This document shows positions 2,604 to 38,620 of a stretch of DNA of 64,000 nucleotides, piece after piece; position 1 is the first letter of the stretch; the number at the start of each line of letters is the position of its first letter. The position numbers were made by a program, and so were the translations under genes. The notes below the pieces were generated by a model, which was not told the origin of the DNA, ran no database searches, and saw nothing but the letters and a program-made list of their open reading frames with translations. The stretch comes from Zarea fungicola (Eukaryota; Ascomycota; Sordariomycetes; Hypocreales; Cordycipitaceae). Location of the stretch: assembly GCA_900169235.1 (NCBI GenBank), contig FWCC01000140.1, forward strand, positions 124,001 through 188,000, in the 5' to 3' direction.

Positions 2604-4889
2604 ATGTATTTTTACATTGTTCTCTTCTCGGCTGCTTGTGTGGTCTGCAGCTGCTCACCACTGGTTGATCCTTGTGAGATGATCCCCTCTTCACTGGATG
2701 CAAGGCAACTGTCAGTGTCAGGAAACGGTGCAAACAGCACCCAGTTTGGACCTTCAAATACGCCGCTTGTGAGAGGTCTTACCACCTCAATCGCCGGGGC
2801 GATAGCCATATGGACTGGGGTCACATATACCTTCATTATCTCTCGCAGCCCGTCCCTAGCGCAGGGCCTGGCGTTGCCGCTGCGGAGCTTGGAGCGAAGC
2901 CTTTCCACTATACTCGCCGAGGCCTGGGTCTCCAAACTACTTTCTCCTCTCGAGCGTGAGCGTATGGGCTGCTTACAGGTTCTCCGACTTGAGGAAAGAA
3001 AGTGCCCTATACAAGTCTCTGATCTTCAAGACAATGCTGTCTTTGATCGTCCCAACATACCCAATCCCGTTCAAGAAACGGCAGGGCTTAGCGAAGAAGG
3101 TTCAAGTAGGCGAGACTCCAATCTTGCTGCAAGAGACTCTGATGATACGGAAGAGGATTCTGAGCCAGCGTTCTTCGGCCGCGGGCATGAAGAGGTTGAC
3201 CAAAGTTCGGTCCCTCGCGAGGATCAGATACTTTATCAGAGTACCAAGAGCGCTCATCAAATTTGGCTTAACCCTGCTTCCTCGGTCATCAAAAATATCA
3301 TTATATTAGGAATCTGGGAGTTTTGGAGTTTCTGGATGGTTCTAGCTATGGTTGCGCTCACTGTGGTCTATAACGGCTTCATTTACCAACAACGTGGCCC
3401 AGACGCAGTTCTTCGACTCGTCTTGATTTGCATATATGCGACCATTAATTTTGCGCACATGGGTGTCACCTGGATATATCTATGGAGAATTCTTGATTCA
3501 GTGGGAAACCAGGTCTGCTGGGTTATCATCTCGAGAGTGTTCGTTTTCTTCTCACCAGAAAACCACCGCAAATCACGACAAGGCATCAACGACAGTGATC
3601 AGGGATGCTTGTGGGATCCAGAGATTCCTCTGTACTTGCGGTCATTCCAATGCGAGCTCCTTGGTCCGATCAAAACCGTGAAACTATGTAGAAGCGCCAA
3701 TACATCCTTGACAGTTGACAAACTGGGTGGATCTAGTCAAGATGTGTCCGCAAACTGGGAGGGAACTTATAGCGATCCGAAAATATTTCTCAAAGACTGG
3801 GAGGGGCCAAAAACTACAGCGGAGGACGATTTGAAGCCTTTGATAGACGTGGAAATCAAGGCCTTGGAGAAAGCTGCGGAATCCGGGCTGGAAAAGCAGC
3901 TTGCCAACGTCATTATCTTGCTGGGCATTTGCTTGTCAACTGGACTGGCGCCGTGGACGACAATACAGTCAAAGGACTCAACAGCCACACAGATCGGTTC
4001 CTACGCTATCATTCTATCCATTAGCACAGGGTCTGCAGCACTGGTTGCCAGCCTAAGCTACCTTAGCAATGCTGCAGCCTCGGTGGAGACGTTACGGCGA
4101 CTGCAATATCATATACTGTCTTTATCAAAAGAGGAGTATGAGATGAATCTGTCTGCAAGGACCGCCCGGTATGGCAGCAGAGCTTGTGAGGTTGCAAAAA
4201 TTACCTACTTATTCGAATTCGGCGATCTTTTCGACAGCACGAGCCATCAGCTGAAGCTATTGTGGCTACTTTGGGGTCCGTTCCTGGGTCTCCTGTCAAA
4301 GCCACGAAAGAACCAATATAAGGAGAGTCAAAGACAAGGATGGGGCTCCGTATTGGATGTAGAAGCCGCACAGCCTCTTCAGGAGTCTACGACTACTGAC
4401 GAGGATTCTGACCAGCATGCCGACCAACATTCTGACGATAATGCGATGCGCTTCACAATTCCCAACTCTTCTTATACAGCCGACAATCCAGTGCCTGGAG
4501 ATGCCAATCCTCTGCCACCTACAGATGTAGGAGCTGCGCTTACTACGGCACATTCGCTCTTTCAATTCGACACGTCCAAGTACAGGCTGCGTAAGGCTGA
4601 CTTGAATGAGGTGGATGATCATGTCGCTCGGGTGCGAGTAAAACAGCAATCGCAGAGTATTGTGGCAGGCCAAGGGCAGAGGCAAGGTTCCAATGTCCCT
4701 GAACCAGCTTCTACTCTCGTGGAAGGTACGATTCCATATGGTGAGAACGTCGGGGATTCTATCCCATTACACAATCAACCTCCCTCGGTCGGATCGTCTG
4801 GACGAATGGGAAACGGGGCGATGGAAACAGCTCAAGGCGAAACAAATGGGCCTGAGGCGTCGGTGTCGAGAGTCGCCCCTACATTATAG
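2604..4889 (+). CDS. Fungal multi-pass membrane protein of unknown function
   Basis: A 761-residue single-exon ORF with a good ATG. I do not recognise the family. Hydrophobic segments by eye: 3-20 (signal peptide or first helix), 58-80, 230-257, 268-293, 302-316, 432-450, 463-487 and a short one at 550-565. An acidic cytoplasm-like loop (about 160-215) separates the first helices from the central group. The C-terminal ~190 residues are hydrophilic, rich in D/S/Q and probably disordered. There are no catalytic motifs. Small introns inside the model cannot be excluded, but the frame is open throughout. It lies on the same strand as the DUF7580-like gene; a functional link is not shown. Confidence 0.7.
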   Translation: MYFYIVLFSAACVVCSCSPLVDPCEMIPSSLDARQLSVSGNGANSTQFGPSNTPLVRGLTTSIAGAIAIWTGVTYTFIISRSPSLAQGLALPLRSLERSLSTILAEAWVSKLLSPLERERMGCLQVLRLEERKCPIQVSDLQDNAVFDRPNIPNPVQETAGLSEEGSSRRDSNLAARDSDDTEEDSEPAFFGRGHEEVDQSSVPREDQILYQSTKSAHQIWLNPASSVIKNIIILGIWEFWSFWMVLAMVALTVVYNGFIYQQRGPDAVLRLVLICIYATINFAHMGVTWIYLWRILDSVGNQVCWVIISRVFVFFSPENHRKSRQGINDSDQGCLWDPEIPLYLRSFQCELLGPIKTVKLCRSANTSLTVDKLGGSSQDVSANWEGTYSDPKIFLKDWEGPKTTAEDDLKPLIDVEIKALEKAAESGLEKQLANVIILLGICLSTGLAPWTTIQSKDSTATQIGSYAIILSISTGSAALVASLSYLSNAAASVETLRRLQYHILSLSKEEYEMNLSARTARYGSRACEVAKITYLFEFGDLFDSTSHQLKLLWLLWGPFLGLLSKPRKNQYKESQRQGWGSVLDVEAAQPLQESTTTDEDSDQHADQHSDDNAMRFTIPNSSYTADNPVPGDANPLPPTDVGAALTTAHSLFQFDTSKYRLRKADLNEVDDHVARVRVKQQSQSIVAGQGQRQGSNVPEPASTLVEGTIPYGENVGDSIPLHNQPPSVGSSGRMGNGAMETAQGETNGPEASVSRVAPTL

Positions 4890-31269: not shown

Positions 31270-31699
31270 ATGGGTGGTGACTCCAGACAAGGCATGTGAT
31301 TCGTTACCGACTTGCCGGGCCTTGTTCTCTCTGCTGGTTGGCTATTGTCCTGCAAGGTCGCAAACAGCAAGGGACAGCGCCCGAATTCTTGCTTTACAGG
31401 CCGCTAACAGGATGTAAACATAGGTGGCAAGGCCAAGCCTTTGAAGGCGAAGAAGAAGGCTGCTGTTGACTACGATTCCGATGACGAGAGACGCATTGCA
31501 GGCGAACGTGAGAGTATGTATTAATTTTTTCCCTCTCGGCGGGTTGAAACTAGAACATGTTCAACTGAGATTGCAGCAAGGCTAACCCGCCCATTTTATA
31601 GAAGCCAAGGAACTCAAGGCCGCTCAGCAAGTTGCTGCCTCTAGTAAGGGGCCTCTGAAGATGGGAAGCCAGGGTCTCAAGAAGAGCGGTAAAAAGTGA
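31270..31699 (+). CDS. tma7: Translation machinery-associated protein 7
   Basis: Too small and too interrupted to stand out as an ORF. The model joins 31270-31276, 31424-31513 and 31602-31699, giving 64 residues, the normal TMA7 length. The protein starts MGGGGKAKPLKAKKK, has an acidic centre (DYDSDDE) and ends KGPLKMGSQGLKKSGKK, the hallmark TMA7 tail. The last intron has GTATGT and TAG ends, and the first uses a GCTAAC branch before TAG. The first coding exon is only 7 nt (ATG GGT G). An alternative donor 3 nt earlier would delete one Gly. TMA7 is a small basic protein associated with ribosomes. Divergent from prp4, convergent with the NLR gene. Confidence 0.88.
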
Positions 31700-31979: not shown

Positions 31980-34900
31980 TTATTCAGAACTCGCGCCGTT
32001 CATTTCATGCGCATCTCCCACAATCTCTTGTTCTACACCCGAGATAGTAATATCAGCTGCGGATGTTGTGGAGGGCGCAAAGGTGTCCGTAGAGCCTTGT
32101 CCATCAGTCTCCTCGTCACTGTCAGAATACAACTCCATCAAATCATTCAGGTCTTGAATGGCCGACAGAGTATCCTCGTCGTCTGGTCCAAATGTCTCCT
32201 GACATATGCGGAGTCTCTCTTGTACTAGCTCACGAGTTGCGTCCATGTCCAAGTATATAAGATCGAATAACAGCAACCGCATGTAATCGAGTGTTGTACG
32301 GTCTTGAGCACCGGCAATGCTCCGTCTGAGTTCGAATGCCGTTCTGAATATCTCCACCGACTCGCTGTATTGCTTTTGCATGCTTTGCAAGCGGCCTACC
32401 CAGATCTTCGCTGCCATTGTTTCATCATCGGTTTCGCCATTCTCTGCCAGCTGTATTTTCCATACTTCAACAGAGATCGCTAGGGCTTCTTCAATGCGTC
32501 CCTGCTTGTGGTATACAACTCCCAGTGCCTCCATAGCATCAATCGTCTGAAAATCGCATGGGCCGTACGCAGTCTTGCATCTCACTAGGAGATCGCTAGC
32601 TAGCGATTCTGCTTCGCTGAGCTCTTGTTCCCCAGTAAGGACAGCTATTAAGAAACTTGAAACTCGGATAGCGAGGTCATTGTCCAGACTCAAAGCAGGT
32701 TTCTCAAACGTTTCTCTTAGCAGTTTCTTCGCGTCCTCGTGCAAGCCGTTCATGTATAGGCTTCGTGCCAGATAAAACATACACCACAATGTTTTGATGT
32801 GCTCAGGGCCGTATTGAAGCTTGCGGGAAGCAAGTGCTCTCGTGTACCAATCGCCTGCTTCGCTGAACTTCTGTTGCGAATAAAATACAAAGGCCAGCGT
32901 TTGCTGGGCATTTGCTCGTGCACCATCCAACGATTTCGGCAGCTGCGACATTTGAAGCGCAGTCATGTACATCCTCTCCGAGTTAGCAAGGCGGCGCTGC
33001 GTATAATACATGTATCCAAGCTGACAAGCAGAGTCGAACGTATCCGGATGGTCAGCTCCACAAAGAGCCTGTCTCTGCCGCAGCACAGACAAATGAATCT
33101 CCTCCGCTTCTTCATGCCGCTTAAGCTCTTCGCAGACCTCTGCGTGGTCATGGAGGGCGTCAAATGTCTCTTTGTGATCCGGTCCAAACAAGTTTTTCCA
33201 CTTTTCGACAACTTTAGACTGTAATTCGTAAGCCTCTTCGAATCGTTTCTGCTCTCTGTACACAGTCACTAAACGTTCCATTGTAATAAACACATGTTCA
33301 TGCTCCTCGCCTAGAGTATTTCTTGTTGCTTCTAAGATATACAAGTTCAGGGCCTCAGACTTGTCGAACTGCTCGCTTTCGGCGTATATTACTGCCAAGT
33401 GTGACATGTATGCCAGTGTCCTGGCGTCGGTAACGCCATATTCGGATTTTCCTAATTCTATAGCCTGAGATGCGAGTTCTTCTGCCTCTTTCAAGCGCTT
33501 CTGAAGAATGTATACATCCGAGAGACTTAGCATGGTGGTAAAAGTAAGTCCATGGTTGGGCTCAGCCAGGCTTTTGCAGGCTTCGAGGATGTCGGTAAGC
33601 ATTTTCTCAGCCTCATCTACTTGGCCCAGGTCACGTATTGCCTCAGCGTATAGCTGCTTGCATAGTAATATCTGGGTCTGTTCTTTACGACCTGATAAGG
33701 CTTTTTTGGCAAGACTTTTCGCCAATTCGAAATGGCGCTCATCCTGAGCGAAGCGCCCAAGCTCAAGGCATAGATATAGCCATCCTTCCATGCTGTCTTC
33801 ATTTGGCCGATAGCTTGTGGCAATTTGTGCATGTGTGAAAAGATACCGCTGTTGCGACAGATCCACAGGATCTACTTCAGGAAATGCCGCCGAAACTCGC
33901 TTAATGAAGGTCTGCTTAAACTGCTCCTGTTTCTTAGACGCAGACAACCACCTTTTTGTTGCCAGCTGCACGAGGCGGTGCATCTCAAAATCTTTGCCGT
34001 TGTGACAAGTCGAAATGAGGCAGAATGCGTTGAGTAAAGTAATGTCGTCCTCAAATTGGATAGCAGTATCATTAACGGAACCAGTGTCTGAGAATTCATC
34101 TGCATCGCTGAAGCTATCCATCGAGAAAGATACGGTAAGCGATGAAAAGTCATCCAGCACAGTATTTTGCTCGACTTCTGCGCTGGTGTCAGCGTGTTGG
34201 TTAAGGGGCAAACCCGTCGCTTTTGGATCAGGCCTGATGACGGATTCGGGAATAGACTGATTATCGAAGAAGGACATGAGGGAGAGAAGATCTGCAGCAG
34301 ATGGTTGTACTGTCTGAATATGGTCAAATGACATCTGCCATGATTTCATTACGGCGTTCGATGCAGACCCATCACGACGCAACTCAGCAGCATCGTATGC
34401 AAGGAGCCGCGCAAATTTTCCATCACTTTCGTGTAATTCAGTCAGGTAAGTTTCTGGCGTACAACGGGGCGATCGCATTTGTATGTAGCTCGCCGCCTGA
34501 CTGATTGCAAGCGGAATGTAGTCTAGAGCCTTGACAAGTTCTGCACCGGTCTTTGGGTCCGCCATCGAGCTTGTCTTTTTAGAAAGAAAAGCAATAGCTT
34601 GTTCCGGCTCCATCGGGCCAATCTTGATGATGGTCTGGTAGTTGCCCGCTACTCGAAAAGCGAGGTTACTGTCTCGAGTCGTTATCAGAATGGAGCCGTT
34701 TCTGCTCTGGGGCAAGTAAGTCGCCAGTGGTGTCTGGTCTTTGTCTGCCCCGTAAAATATCTGATCATCGTCGGCGCTATCGAGTATCATGAGCCATCTG
34801 CCATTGCGCTCATTGGATAGCCAAGTGTGCAAAAGTGATAGGACATTGGCGTTCTGCCTATGTCTTCCAGGTAGATTTACAGCGTCAGCAATGGCGCGGA

Positions 34901-35314
34901 AACCCTCCTCAACCCGCGCTTTTGTGCCGGCGTGGACCCAAAACACCCAGCTATCGCAGTGCAACTCCTTCGTCCGATACGCATACTCGATGGCCAGCTG
35001 CGATTTACCGACACCGCCTAAGCCACAAAGTGCCGCCCTGCCGCCTGGTTTTGAGCAGTGCATGGAGATTTGGTCCAGAAGATCGCCGCGACTGATAAAG
35101 TCTGGATCTCGCGAAAATGGCACCAAAGCGAAGGGCGCAGGAGTAGTCTCATCGACTTCCTTTCCAAGTTAGCTTATTCAAGGCCGAAATTTGTTGGAAA
35201 GGGTGTATTACCCTGCGCTTCAGTATAGTTATGAACATGGGTCACAGAACTATTGCCGACGTGGATTCGCGCATTTCCGTCGGCCTTGACGTCGCGAACG
35301 CTGACAGACTCCAT
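31980..35314 (-). CDS. NLR: N-terminal amyloid-like motif, NB-ARC, TPR repeats
   Basis: Two exons, 35314-35212 and 35155-31980, about 1092 residues. Exon 1 begins MESVSVRDV and contains ARIHVGN (residues 15-21), which resembles HET-s-type amyloid motifs. The intron (56 nt, GTAATA..AAG with a GCTAAC branch) keeps frame into VDETTPAPF. The NB-ARC follows at once: P-loop GLGGVGKS (79-86), Walker B LMILD (~156-160), sensor ILITTRDS (~192), PLA, and an MHD-like MHRLVQ near 400-440. The rest is a long array of TPR/kinesin-light-chain-type repeats with alternating ALxxxxxLxG and YGxxHPDT-like turns, ending in an acidic tail. There is no separate N-terminal effector domain. By known biology, such receptors oligomerise on ligand and pass the signal through the amyloid motif. 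The neighbouring HET-S homologue is the obvious partner. The intron model is mine; NB-ARC and TPR are certain. Confidence 0.88.
35225..35281 (-). other. Amyloid-like motif R0 at the NLR N-terminus
   Basis: Encodes residues 12-30 of the NLR (core ARIHVGN, then SSVTHVHNY). It aligns with ARVRIGN and SRVQVGN of the adjacent HET-S homologue: small residue, Arg, aliphatic, polar, aliphatic, Gly, Asn. The second half is less similar to the HET-s pattern, so amyloid templating is an inference. Confidence 0.6.
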
Positions 35315-35619
35315 GACTGCATAGCTGTCTATGCGACGTCAAAATTTGGTGATGTTACACAGAATTTTCCCAATTATATCTTTTCTTGCCGGAAACAAAA
35401 CTCAGAAATAAAATGGATTTTGGAAGAAACGGACCGTAGCGAGGGGAATGCACTATGCGTTGTCCCGTCTGGGCGGTTAGCGGGCCAATAAGACGTGCAG
35501 TTGAAATGTCGCAGCAGCAGGTCCAAAACGGGCTGGGCAGTAATATAATGGCAATCCAAGAAGCCTCTGCATTCTTGCTTTCCTGTCTCTCAATACCATC
35601 CTCCATTTAAAAAACCCCC
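35315..35619. promoter_or_regulatory. Shared divergent promoter of the NLR/HET-S pair
   Basis: 305 bp separate the two start codons, so both genes are probably controlled from one region. On the NLR side, an upstream ATG (ATGCAGTC) lies 7 nt before the main ATG and out of frame; it would give a short overlapping uORF that could limit NLR translation. CA- and T-rich tracts occur, with no identifiable factor site. Confidence 0.6.
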
Positions 35620-36462
35620 ATGGCTGAAATATTCGGCACCATCTCCGCGGCGCTGAGCGTGGCGGCGCTCTTCAACAACGCCGTCGAGTGCTTTGGCTAC
35701 ATCCAGCTCGGCCGGCACTACGGGCGGGACTACGAGCGGTGCCAGCTCAAGCTCGACATCGTACAGGCCAGGCTGACCAAGTGGGGGGACGCCGTGTGCA
35801 TCCACGACGACGTCCGCTTCGCCACGACGTCTCCGACCGACGAGTCGACCATGCGGGCCAAGGTCATACTCGAGGAGATTAGTATGCTCTTCCAGACGGC
35901 CCGGAAGACGTCGGCGCGATATGAGATTGAGTCCACCGCGGCGGCGGTGGCGCAGAGCTCGTGGCCAGCGCTGCACATCTTCCACGGCGTGCTGCGGAAA
36001 AAGGGAAAAGAGCGGCAGCGGCAGAGCAGCTTCAAGCAGAAGATGAAGTGGGCGCTGTATGACGCCAAGGAGTTTCAGCGGCTGCTGGCCAGCGCCAGCG
36101 GCTTCGTGGACGACCTGGAGAAGCTCTATCCTGCCCAGCAGCAGCACCGAGAGGAAGCCATACTGCCAGAAGGGAATGCAGTCCAGGAGACCATGTCGGA
36201 CACGACTACACAGATTGACCAGGAGGAGAGCCGACGCGGCTCAGCCAAGAGCGACGAGACGGTCGTGGTGCAAGTCTCGGAGAGCGTCGTTGTGGATGAA
36301 AAGGCTCGTGTGAGGATTGGAAACGAATATTCCGCGGCATCAGTGGCAGATACCCTGACGAAGAAGCCGGGGCTGGTCAAGGCTCACACAATCGAAGCCA
36401 AAGGCACTTCGAGGGTGCAGGTTGGTAACAGCTATGGGTTTGGCAGCATTTTTGACGACTGA
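35620..36462 (+). CDS. het-S: HET-S-like protein: HeLo domain plus two C-terminal amyloid motifs
   Basis: 280 residues in a single exon (Podospora HET-s has 289). Residues 1 to ~220 form a HeLo domain. The N-terminus FGTISAALSVAALFNNAVEC is the hydrophobic helix that acts in membranes once the domain is activated. Residue 33 is His, in GRHYGRDYERCQ; in Podospora His33 marks the killing-competent HET-S allele and Pro33 the prion allele HET-s. The C-terminus has two pseudo-repeats: R1 from 226 (EKARVRIGNEY) and R2 from 262 (GTSRVQVGNSYGFG), joined by a ~15-residue loop and ending in an aromatic (IFDD). This matches the two-layer beta-solenoid prion domain. Expected role: cytosolic cell-death executor switched on by amyloid templating from the divergent NLR. 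There is no break in the gene. Activity itself is not demonstrated by sequence. Confidence 0.93.
   Translation: MAEIFGTISAALSVAALFNNAVECFGYIQLGRHYGRDYERCQLKLDIVQARLTKWGDAVCIHDDVRFATTSPTDESTMRAKVILEEISMLFQTARKTSARYEIESTAAAVAQSSWPALHIFHGVLRKKGKERQRQSSFKQKMKWALYDAKEFQRLLASASGFVDDLEKLYPAQQQHREEAILPEGNAVQETMSDTTTQIDQEESRRGSAKSDETVVVQVSESVVVDEKARVRIGNEYSAASVADTLTKKPGLVKAHTIEAKGTSRVQVGNSYGFGSIFDD
36295..36459 (+). repeat. HET-s-type amyloid motifs R1 and R2 (protein-level repeat)
   Basis: R1 lies at about 36295-36357 (residues 226-246) and R2 at about 36403-36459 (residues 262-280). Core alignment: ARVRIGNEY with SRVQVGNSY. The 36-residue spacing equals that of the HET-s solenoid. The repeat is weak at DNA level, consistent with old divergence under protein-level constraint. 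Confidence 0.85.
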
Positions 36463-37528: not shown

Positions 37529-38620
37529 ATGGCATCCTCATCATCGCCGCCAACATCAAGTGTCCGGCAGCGCCGGCCATCCTTTCGCGCCTCCGCCATC
37601 AGCGCCGCCAAGACCATAGAGCACAAGGTCGAAGACACGCTCCTCCAGCTCTGGGATGACCTCCCCGCCTGGCGCCGCGACAATGCCTTTATTCATTCCG
37701 GCTACCGCCAGATCCGCGGCTCCTACGCCCACTCTGCCCGCTCCCTCTTCTACCTGCACAACGAGTTTGTCAACATCTGGTCGCACCTCCTTGGCGCTCT
37801 TGTTGCCGTCGTCGTCGCCGCATATCTCTACTGCGTGATCCATCCGCGGTACGACTCGGCTAGCGCCGCCGACATTGCCGTCTTTGCGTGCTTCTTTGGC
37901 GGCGCCGTCCTGTGCCTGGGCATGAGCGCGACCTTTCACGCCGTCGTGGATCACAGCGCCGAGGTCGCCCGCTGGGGCAACAAGCTGGATTACACGGGAA
38001 TCGTGGCCCTCATCGTGGGCAGCTACGTGCCTGCGCTGTATTACGGCTTCTTCTGCCAGCCGGCACTGTTTCAAGCCTATCTCTGCACGGTGAGTACGAG
38101 ACATTTCCACTTAACAAAGGGGAAATAAAAGAAAACCATGGCTACCGTTCATATACTAACACATGGAGGTGTAGATGTGTGCTCTTGGAGTAGGCTGCGC
38201 GACTGTGTCCTGGGTTGAGCGCTTCCGCACCGCCGCCTGGCGTCCGTACCGCGCCGCCATGTTCGTCTGCCTCGGTGTGTCCGGCGTCGTCCCCATTGTC
38301 CATGGCATCCGGGCCCACGGCTACCAGTACTTTGAAGATCGCATGGGCCTGAGCTGGGTCATTCTCCAGGGCGCCATGTACATATTCGGCGCCGTTCTCT
38401 ACGCCGTACATTCAAAGTCTAGTCTAGTACTATGGACTACTCGCTAACATCCTTATAGTCACGATGGCCGGAACGAAGCTTCCCCGGCAAGTTTGACATT
38501 TGGGGCAGCTCGCATCAAATCTTCCACATGTGTGTGCTGCTGGCCGCAGCGACGCACTTTTACGGCATGTCCAAGGCATTTGACTACCACCACACAGGCA
38601 ACGGGGCGCAGTGCTCATGA
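37529..38620 (+). CDS. PAQR / Izh-type receptor (hemolysin III superfamily)
   Basis: Three exons, 37529-38089, 38175-38405 and 38459-38620 (317 residues), with GTGAGT..TAG and GTACAT..TAG introns and frame preserved. After a basic N-terminus comes the family entry motif DDLPAWRRDNAFIHSGYR and the NEFVNIWSHLLGA block. Seven membrane helices follow. The metal-site motifs are present: SATFHAVVDHS in helix 2 and HQIFHMCVLLAAATHFYG in helix 7. Length and motifs fit fungal Izh1/adiponectin-receptor-like proteins, which act in membrane lipid/ceramide and zinc homeostasis. The tail is only 91 bp from the convergent TFIIIC gene. Confidence 0.93.

What the first reader, a model, noticed from the sequence alone, without database searches (positions are those of the whole stretch)
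31980..36462. Complete NLR and HET-S divergent pair: a candidate prion-templated cell-death module
Seen: a NB-ARC-TPR receptor with an ARIHVGN motif at its N-terminus lies head-to-head (305 bp) with a HET-S homologue bearing two motifs of the same pattern. Known: in Podospora the NLR NWD2 carries an amyloid motif before its nucleotide-binding domain, templates the HET-S prion fold, and triggers HeLo pore formation; the genes are adjacent. Inferred: the same signalosome here, with a different (TPR) sensor.
Basis: partly seen in the sequence, partly recalled or inferred. Interest (0 to 1): 0.93.

Follow-up and report, generated by a model that had tools for sequence, protein, structure and literature searches.

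The report
Fungal prion-triggered cell-death gene pair
Two neighbouring fungal genes look like a sensor and a membrane-killing protein that talk to each other by copying an amyloid (prion-like) shape; such pairs are already known in other fungi, and this one is a variant with an unusual sensor.

Summary
A 280-aa HET-S homologue (HeLo domain plus two HET-s-type repeats, 35620-36462 +) lies head-to-head, 305 bp away, with a NB-ARC-TPR receptor (35314-31980 -). The receptor's N-terminal motif (R0) sits on a short first exon, joined across a predicted 56-bp intron. A profile trained on 204 repeats from other HET-S proteins, run over all 62,904 stop-free six-frame 21-mers of the window, scores only three above 8 bits: R0, R2 and R1. 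Relatives keep R0 (81-95% pairwise), and the two genes carry consecutive locus numbers in two named species. The best reading is an amyloid-templated NLR signalosome of the NWD2/HET-S type. No seeding or cell death was tested.

Novelty is moderate. Such pairs are described, and FNT1/HELLF of Podospora already joins a HET-s-related motif to a NB-ARC-TPR receptor. What is less ordinary: all three repeats lack the asparagine at motif position 3; the sensor half diverges far faster than the signalling half; and the same genome holds three further head-to-head, motif-sharing effector/NLR pairs, including a HeLo/NACHT-WD pair.

The parts
35620..36462 (+). HET-S homologue (effector), single-exon ORF, 280 aa
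35635..36162 (+). HeLo domain, residues 6-181; carries H33, the residue named in the HET-s mutant D23A P33H (PDB 2wvq)
   Evidence: Pfam HeLo 2.7e-43; phmmer to 2wvo 4.7e-50; H33 in 10 of 10 clade members and 84 of 110 other homologues
36265..36327 (+). repeat R1 of the prion-forming region, residues 216-236, G at motif position 19
   Evidence: PSSM 17.6 bits; PF11558; predicted strands 217-225 and 230-233
36370..36432 (+). repeat R2, residues 251-271
   Evidence: PSSM 26.0 bits; predicted strands 252-260 and 265-268
36433..36459 (+). C-terminal aromatic tail after R2 (residues 272-280), 100% identical among the 7 clade members compared
35315..35619 (.). 305-bp intergenic region between the two start codons, likely shared divergent promoter (inferred)
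35212..35314 (-). NLR exon 1 (start codon 35314), encodes R0
   Evidence: five relatives' proteins start the same way
35249..35311 (-). R0, single HET-s-related motif, residues 2-22 of the NLR
   Evidence: PSSM 29.4 bits, rank 1 of 62,904; PF11558 E 0.0014; one place in the genome
35156..35211 (-). predicted 56-bp intron
   Evidence: no RNA evidence
31980..35155 (-). NLR exon 2 (NB-ARC, ARC/DUF7779, TPR), to the stop codon
34491..35036 (-). NB-ARC domain; Walker A GLGGVGKS 35001-35024, Walker B-like LMILDS 34776-34793
   Evidence: Pfam 5.8e-9; motifs
33966..33983 (-). MHRLVQ, the MHD-like motif at the end of the NOD
   Evidence: sequence; the equivalence to MHD is recalled, not tested
32139..33893 (-). 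TPR superhelix, the presumed ligand sensor
   Evidence: 7 stretches of TPR_12; model of exon 2 pLDDT 82.8, top PDB match a STAND-TPR protein 6mfv, 2.4e-12

Best explanation
This is a two-gene NLR signalosome of the NWD2/HET-S kind. The TPR half of the receptor is proposed to bind a ligand (unknown). [quoted passage not shown] That fold templates the R1-R2 region of the neighbouring HET-S protein, whose HeLo domain then refolds, inserts in the membrane and kills the cell or compartment, as in defence or non-self recognition. Shown here: domains, the motif triad, linkage in relatives, intact nucleotide-binding motifs, conservation pattern. Inferred from the Podospora system: oligomerisation, amyloid templating, membrane attack. 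In this lineage the pair has two twists: its three motifs share the absence of the position-3 asparagine, and its TPR sensor diverges quickly while R0, NB-ARC and effector are held.
For: HeLo and PF11558 over cut-off in one protein. R0, R1 and R2 are the only three profile hits above 8 bits in the window. R0 on the NLR N-terminus of 5 predicted relatives, 69-75% identical over residues 1-42. Adjacent locus numbers in 2 named species and equal contig lengths in 2 more pairs. Mean pairwise identity among 5 full-length receptors, the window's included: R0 89%, NB-ARC 74%, ARC 66%, TPR 31%. Receptor clade 100/100 by NB-ARC. Template-free model of HET-S gives a helical domain plus two strand-turn-strand rungs; Foldseek returns HET-S HeLo structures (2wvo 6.7e-6) and, weakly, the HET-s amyloid (2lbu E 9.5e-3, TMt 0.61, prob 1.00). 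The mechanism itself is shown experimentally for NWD2/HET-S (PMC4344463: start of abstract, passages).
Against: No amyloid, seeding or death assay for this pair. All three motifs lack the position-3 asparagine that 101 of 109 (R1) and 99 of 106 (R2) other homologues have and that R0 consensus keeps in the species of PMC3321046 (section 7); in Podospora, Ala replacement of that Asn pair weakens prion function and replacing both Asn ladders abolishes it (passages of PMC4055769). Here the second ladder (position 20) is kept. R1 scores 17.6 bits, below the 1st percentile of the training repeats (23.4). The HET-S model is of moderate quality (mean pLDDT 65, pTM 0.45) and AlphaFold may have learnt the known amyloid. 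The splice rests on homology, not RNA; that its donor GTAATA is not a strong one is recalled.
Confidence: 0.85

Rival explanations
1. The HET-S protein is a functional effector but this receptor is not its (only) trigger; another NLR in the genome, such as the NACHT-WD receptor at C280, or a prion state of HET-S itself, activates it.
For: C280 carries a head-to-head HeLo/NACHT-WD pair; its R0 scores 31 against the window's R1, above the 25 with its own R1.
Against: The window's R0 matches its own R2 best (41; C280 repeats 22 and 16). R0 and effector are adjacent and both conserved in relatives.
Confidence: 0.12
2. The pair mainly serves allorecognition (heterokaryon incompatibility) between strains rather than defence against parasites; the variable TPR sensor reads an allelic partner.
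For: Two C. javanica records are 93-100% identical over residues 1-360, then 68-54%, then 22-40% from residue 541 on, the sort of polymorphism seen at incompatibility loci (recalled); heterokaryon incompatibility limits mycovirus spread (passages of PMC12881547).
Against: The same pattern is expected for a defence sensor; alleles and paralogues were not told apart.
Confidence: 0.3
3. The R0-NLR joining is wrong: exon 1 belongs to a separate short transcript and the receptor starts inside exon 2.
For: Exon 1 is in another frame; four relatives' gene models lack R0 (P0122, P0131, P0143, P0151).
Against: Five relatives' predicted proteins carry R0 continuous with NB-ARC. Three of the four models without R0 come from a metagenome-type source and may ignore introns (inferred); the fourth, P0143, is a named Cordyceps fumosorosea record.
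Confidence: 0.04
4. The motifs are relics: sequence survives but the amyloid switch is dead in this clade because the position-3 ladder is gone.
For: N3 absent in 10 of 10 clade effectors and in the R0 of 6 of 6 R0-bearing receptors, which have V or I; charge polarity at position 6 is reversed.
Against: R0 is the most conserved part of the receptor; most core positions, G19 and the aromatic tail are kept; 7 of 106 other homologues also lack N3 in both repeats.
Confidence: 0.07

Closest known systems
NWD2 / HET-S, Podospora anserina (HRAM1)
   Same: HeLo effector with two C-terminal 21-aa repeats; NLR with one N-terminal repeat; divergent neighbours (ORFs 0.6 kb apart in Podospora, passages of PMC4344463)
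   Different: Receptor here is NB-ARC-TPR, not NACHT-WD; no N at motif position 3; position-6 charge pair reversed
FNT1 / HELLF, P. anserina (HRAM5)
   Same: NB-ARC-TPR receptor with a HET-s-related R0 next to an amyloid-activated cell-death protein (passages of PMC7885112 and PMC7889193)
   Different: HELLF has a HeLo-like, not HeLo, domain and HRAM5 repeats (Q inside the core); here HeLo and HRAM1-like repeats
PNT1 / HELLP (PP motif)
   Same: NB-ARC-TPR receptor beside a cell-death effector, motif shared N- and C-terminally (passages of PMC7889193)
   Different: PP motif instead of a HET-s-type repeat; the genome here has its own PP-like pair at C334
Arthroderma HeLo / NB-ARC-TPR pairs (passages of PMC3321046)
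   Same: HeLo effector beside a NB-ARC-TPR STAND gene
C280 pair in this same genome
   Same: HeLo effector with two HRAM-like repeats, head-to-head NLR with one
   Different: NACHT-WD receptor; R0 has N3; 34% effector identity

Membership tests
HET-S-type effector (HeLo plus HET-s prion-forming region) | N-terminal HeLo domain | tested here: met
   2.7e-43, residues 6-181; 2wvo 4.7e-50
HET-S-type effector (HeLo plus HET-s prion-forming region) | two C-terminal 21-aa repeats, PF11558 | tested here: met
   42.1 bits, cut-off 32.2; R1 and R2 by profile
HET-S-type effector (HeLo plus HET-s prion-forming region) | amyloid formation and HeLo toxicity | not testable with these tools
   needs fibril and toxicity assays
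HRAM motif in general | hydrophobic at 5, 8, 10, 16, 18; G19; R/K15 | tested here: met
   R0 and R2 fit (A counted as hydrophobic); R1 has S at position 5 and fits elsewhere (rules from passages of PMC4518210)
HRAM1 subclass | N at position 3 | tested here: not met
   R0 V, R1 Q, R2 V; 0 of 10 clade effectors have N3 in either repeat
HRAM2-5 subclasses | Q3 (HRAM2), H3 (HRAM3), Q18 (HRAM4), Q16 (HRAM5) | tested here: not met
   only R1 of the window has Q3; no H3, no Q at 16 or 18; tested by these marker residues, not by subclass profiles
Amyloid-signalling NLR (NWD2/FNT1 kind) | single motif copy at the very N-terminus of an NLR lacking an effector domain | tested here: met
   R0 residues 2-22, then NB-ARC
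Amyloid-signalling NLR (NWD2/FNT1 kind) | gene adjacent to the effector carrying the same motif | tested here: met
   305 bp here; adjacent numbers in 2 named species
NWD2 proper | NACHT domain and WD repeats | tested here: not met
   NB-ARC 5.8e-9 and TPR; no NACHT or WD family among the 25 of 26 matches shown
Amyloid-signalling NLR (NWD2/FNT1 kind) | R0 seeds the effector's prion region | not testable with these tools
   needs seeding assay

The most novel reading that the evidence does not exclude
In this hypocrealean lineage a HET-S effector was rewired from a NACHT-WD to a NB-ARC-TPR receptor. All three motifs then lost the position-3 asparagine ladder and the effector's charge pair at position 6 flipped, making a new HRAM subclass that no longer cross-talks with the HeLo/NACHT-WD pair kept elsewhere in the same genome. 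The receptor is a constant R0-NB-ARC trigger onto which TPR sensors are exchanged even within a species, so the locus works as a plug-in sensor port for one fixed amyloid executioner.
Probability: 0.3. Interest if true: 0.68.

Novelty: new variant of a known kind. Interest (0 to 1): 0.5.

Why it matters
It places amyloid NLR signalling with a HeLo executioner in Cordycipitaceae-type fungi, with a receptor class described for other amyloid pairs but not, in the texts I saw, for a HeLo protein with HET-s-type repeats. It gives a natural test of how far the HET-s beta-solenoid tolerates losing its first asparagine ladder. With four motif-sharing pairs in one genome, it also offers a setting to test whether parallel amyloid pathways stay insulated.

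Tried and rejected
Pfam alone as a detector: PF11558 finds one place in the genome and misses the C280 prion-forming region, so 'only one HET-s-type effector' would have been wrong. R0-only protein search returned 5 proteins of 7 candidates, all NB-ARC-TPR or TPR by their domains; it needs shared 5-residue words and so cannot show that R0 is absent from NACHT-WD receptors. Insulation of motifs in this genome was tested with a small BLOSUM cross-table: the window's and C360's R0 prefer their own effector, but C280's R0 scores higher with the window's R1 (31) than with its own (25), so full insulation is not supported. Position-3 loss as unique to the clade: rejected, 7 of 106 other homologues also lack N3 in both repeats (4 of 120 proteins lacked one extracted repeat and were left out). 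HeLo tree: a sample of 47 of the 120 listed homologues plus C280; the deep branches are weak and C280 is a long branch, so the order of pair duplication and receptor swap is not resolved. TPR tree: the ten receptors still fall on one side of a branch (98/94), but the window's TPR lies closer by path to outgroup receptors than to the clade's other members except P0122, so exchange and fast divergence could not be told apart. Tandem DNA repeats in the TPR region: none at score 30 or more. Linkage: seen for 4 of the 9 other clade effectors (P0002-P0010); for the other 5 the partner was not seen, which may be due to short contigs or to the listing of only the best 120 of 3,166 receptor hits. The 'clade' is P0001-P0010, set by at least 68% identity; of the nine besides the window's own, three bear species names. 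Two of the six genome regions read (L066, L068) gave no motif-sharing HeLo-type pair by eye; they were not scanned with a profile.
Full report
WHAT IS THERE. On the + strand, 35620-36462 encodes 280 aa with a HeLo domain (2.7e-43, residues 6-181) and a HET-s prion-forming region (PF11558, 42.1 bits against a cut-off of 32.2). The nearest solved structures by sequence are the Podospora HET-s/HET-S N-terminal domains (4.7e-50) and the HET-s amyloid (5.7e-4). Residue 33 is H, as in the PDB construct D23A P33H (2wvq); that H33 marks the toxic HET-S form is recalled. H33 stands in 10 of 10 clade members and 84 of 110 other homologues. On the - strand an ORF 35126-31980 holds NB-ARC (5.8e-9) and seven TPR_12 stretches, with Walker A, a Walker B-like stretch and an MHRLVQ motif.

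R0 AND THE INTRON. It is in another frame at 35314-35212. Removing a 56-bp stretch (35211-35156: GTAATA donor, GCTAAC, AAG acceptor) joins it to NB-ARC in a 1092-aa protein. Five predicted proteins from L. saksenae, A. album, A. muscarius and C. javanica (two) begin with nearly the same residues and run into NB-ARC; four other clade receptors lack R0 in their models. There is no RNA evidence.

IS THE MOTIF MORE THAN CHANCE? I extracted R1 and R2 from the HET-S homologues (the best 120 of 159 are listed). Of the 110 outside the window's clade, R1 could be taken from 109 and R2 from 106. A position matrix from these repeats (215, 204 unique, the clade left out) was run over all 62,904 stop-free 21-mers in six frames of the window. 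Only three exceed 8 bits: R0 29.4, R2 26.0, R1 17.6. R0 and R2 lie between the 1st and 5th percentiles of the training repeats (23.4 and 30.0); R1 lies below the 1st. None of 106,361 21-mers beyond residue 70 of the 120 listed receptor homologues reaches R0 (maximum 0.0), and 0 of 100,000 shuffles do. Among 121 receptor N-termini, six score above 20 (the window's and five relatives'); the next is -4.35. Pfam gives R0 to PF11558 at E 0.0014, below the cut-off. One place in the genome matches R0.

RELATIVES AND LINKAGE. The ten effectors P0001-P0010 are at least 68% identical to the window's; the next listed are 43-46%. Named ones are L. saksenae, A. album and Akanthomyces lecanii; Lecanicillium, Akanthomyces and Cordyceps are genera of Cordycipitaceae (Aphanocladium was not among the genera shown). 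So the host is most likely a fungus of that kind; this is an inference from protein identity. Receptor and effector carry consecutive numbers in L. saksenae (NLG97_g3008 and g3007) and A. album (PWT90_00460 and 00461); two more pairs share contig lengths (38,538 and 13,946), from which I infer linkage. Gene orientation in relatives could not be read.

UNEQUAL EVOLUTION. Among five full-length receptors (the window's and four relatives') the mean pairwise identity is 88.6% for R0, 74.1% for NB-ARC, 66.1% for the ARC region and 31.0% for the TPR region. By NB-ARC the ten clade receptors form one group at 100/100 support among 25. Two records of one species, C. javanica (P0126, P0139), are 93-100% identical in 60-residue windows up to residue 360, then 68, 62 and 54%, then 22-40%. 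Whether they are alleles or paralogues is open. The signalling half is held and the sensing half changes fast.

MOTIF CHEMISTRY. By the rules in PMC4518210 (abstract, passages and sections 7 and 9 read), HRAM1 has N at position 3. R0, R1 and R2 of the window have V, Q and V; R0 of the five relatives has I or V. 0 of 10 clade effectors have N3, against 101 of 109 (R1) and 99 of 106 (R2) other homologues. Seven of 106 others also lack it in both repeats, so the loss is not unique. At position 6 the usual plus-minus pair of R1 and R2 (54 of 106 others) is turned round: minus in R1 in 10 of 10, with H (8), R (1) or Q (1) in R2; minus-plus occurs in 0 of 106 others. The second ladder (position 20) is kept in the window; 2 of 10 clade effectors lack it in one repeat. 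In Podospora, Ala at the first Asn pair has a lesser effect, while a mutant with both ladders replaced lacked activity (passages of PMC4055769). By marker residues the motif belongs to none of HRAM1-5; in PF11558 and the profile it is nearest the HET-s (HRAM1) type.

STRUCTURES. Template-free AlphaFold2 with 29 sequences gives a helical HeLo domain and two strand pairs at R1 and R2 (mean pLDDT 65.2, pTM 0.45). Foldseek returns HET-S HeLo (E 6.7e-6) and, weakly, the HET-s amyloid (E 9.5e-3). The network may have learnt that fold. The receptor model (exon 2 only, pLDDT 82.8) is a NOD plus a long TPR superhelix; the top match is a STAND-TPR protein, 6mfv (2.4e-12).

FOUR PAIRS IN ONE GENOME. The genome has 8 HeLo, 10 HeLo-like (some of them exons of one gene), 25 NB-ARC and 78 NACHT matches; counts are lower bounds and some places match both NB-ARC and NACHT. 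I read six regions. Three hold further motif-sharing pairs. C280: a HeLo protein with two HRAM-like repeats lies head-to-head with a NACHT-WD receptor with one; these are the top three of 6,016 21-mers, though at only 5.2, 2.3 and 0.7 bits (next -5.3). C360: a HeLo-like protein with two 21-aa repeats having Q18-G19 (the HRAM4 mark) lies head-to-head with a NB-ARC-TPR gene whose N-terminal copy scores 73 against those repeats, with the next non-self 21-mer at 21. C334: a HeLo-like protein ending in a PP-like motif lies head-to-head with a NB-ARC-TPR gene beginning with one. The PP and HRAM4 labels are by marker residues, not by profile. Motif cross-scores separate C360 cleanly; the window's R0 prefers its own R2; C280's R0 does not prefer its own effector.

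MECHANISM. Known for NWD2/HET-S: ligand, oligomerisation, R0 solenoid, conversion of the HET-S prion region, HeLo membrane attack (passages of PMC4344463, PMC4518210 and PMC7885112). Here the parts are shown and the steps inferred.

WHAT IS KNOWN. HeLo or HeLo-like effectors with HRAMs lie beside NLRs in 98 of 155 cases (PMC4518210, section 7). FNT1/HELLF pairs an HRAM with NB-ARC-TPR (passages of PMC7885112 and PMC7889193). In Sordariales 87 (56%) of amyloid-motif NLRs are NB-ARC (passages of PMC12258605). NWD2 homologues can have ankyrin or no typical repeats (passage of PMC4344463). My searches (most listings capped) listed no paper on this pair in Cordycipitaceae; supplements were not available to me.

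VERDICT.

Noticed in passing
L067 (G000 C280:26500-32000): Head-to-head HeLo effector (3879-4745 +) with two HRAM-like repeats and a NACHT-WD receptor whose N-terminus carries one; start codons about 0.5 kb apart (counted by hand). Pfam's PF11558 misses it.
   Followed up: partly
L065 (G000 C360:38000-42800): Head-to-head HeLo-like protein with two 21-aa repeats (Q18-G19) and NB-ARC-TPR receptor with one N-terminal copy at 1543-1605 +; no Pfam match for the motif regions.
   Followed up: partly
L064 (G000 C334:52900-57200): Head-to-head HeLo-like protein ending in a PP-like motif and NB-ARC-TPR receptor beginning with one, like the HELLP/PNT1 pair of Podospora.
   Followed up: partly
L069 (G000 C206:17500-22000): Two HeLo-like genes facing away from each other with G-rich C-termini and no NLR seen in the 4.5 kb read.
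   Followed up: no
L066 (G000 C439:25400-29300): A NB-ARC-TPR receptor lies head-to-head with an ORF that looks by eye like a nucleoside-phosphorylase-type effector (recalled look, not searched).
   Followed up: no
P0126 and P0139 (Cordyceps javanica receptors): 93-100% identical up to residue 360, then falling to 22-40% over most of the TPR half: sensor exchange, diversification or paralogy within a species.
   Followed up: partly
   Followed up: no
about 31425-31697 (+) and 37529-38128 (+): The pair sits between a TMA7-like gene (1.3e-14; exons joined by eye) and a haemolysin-III-related membrane protein gene (2.3e-31), ordinary neighbours.
   Followed up: partly
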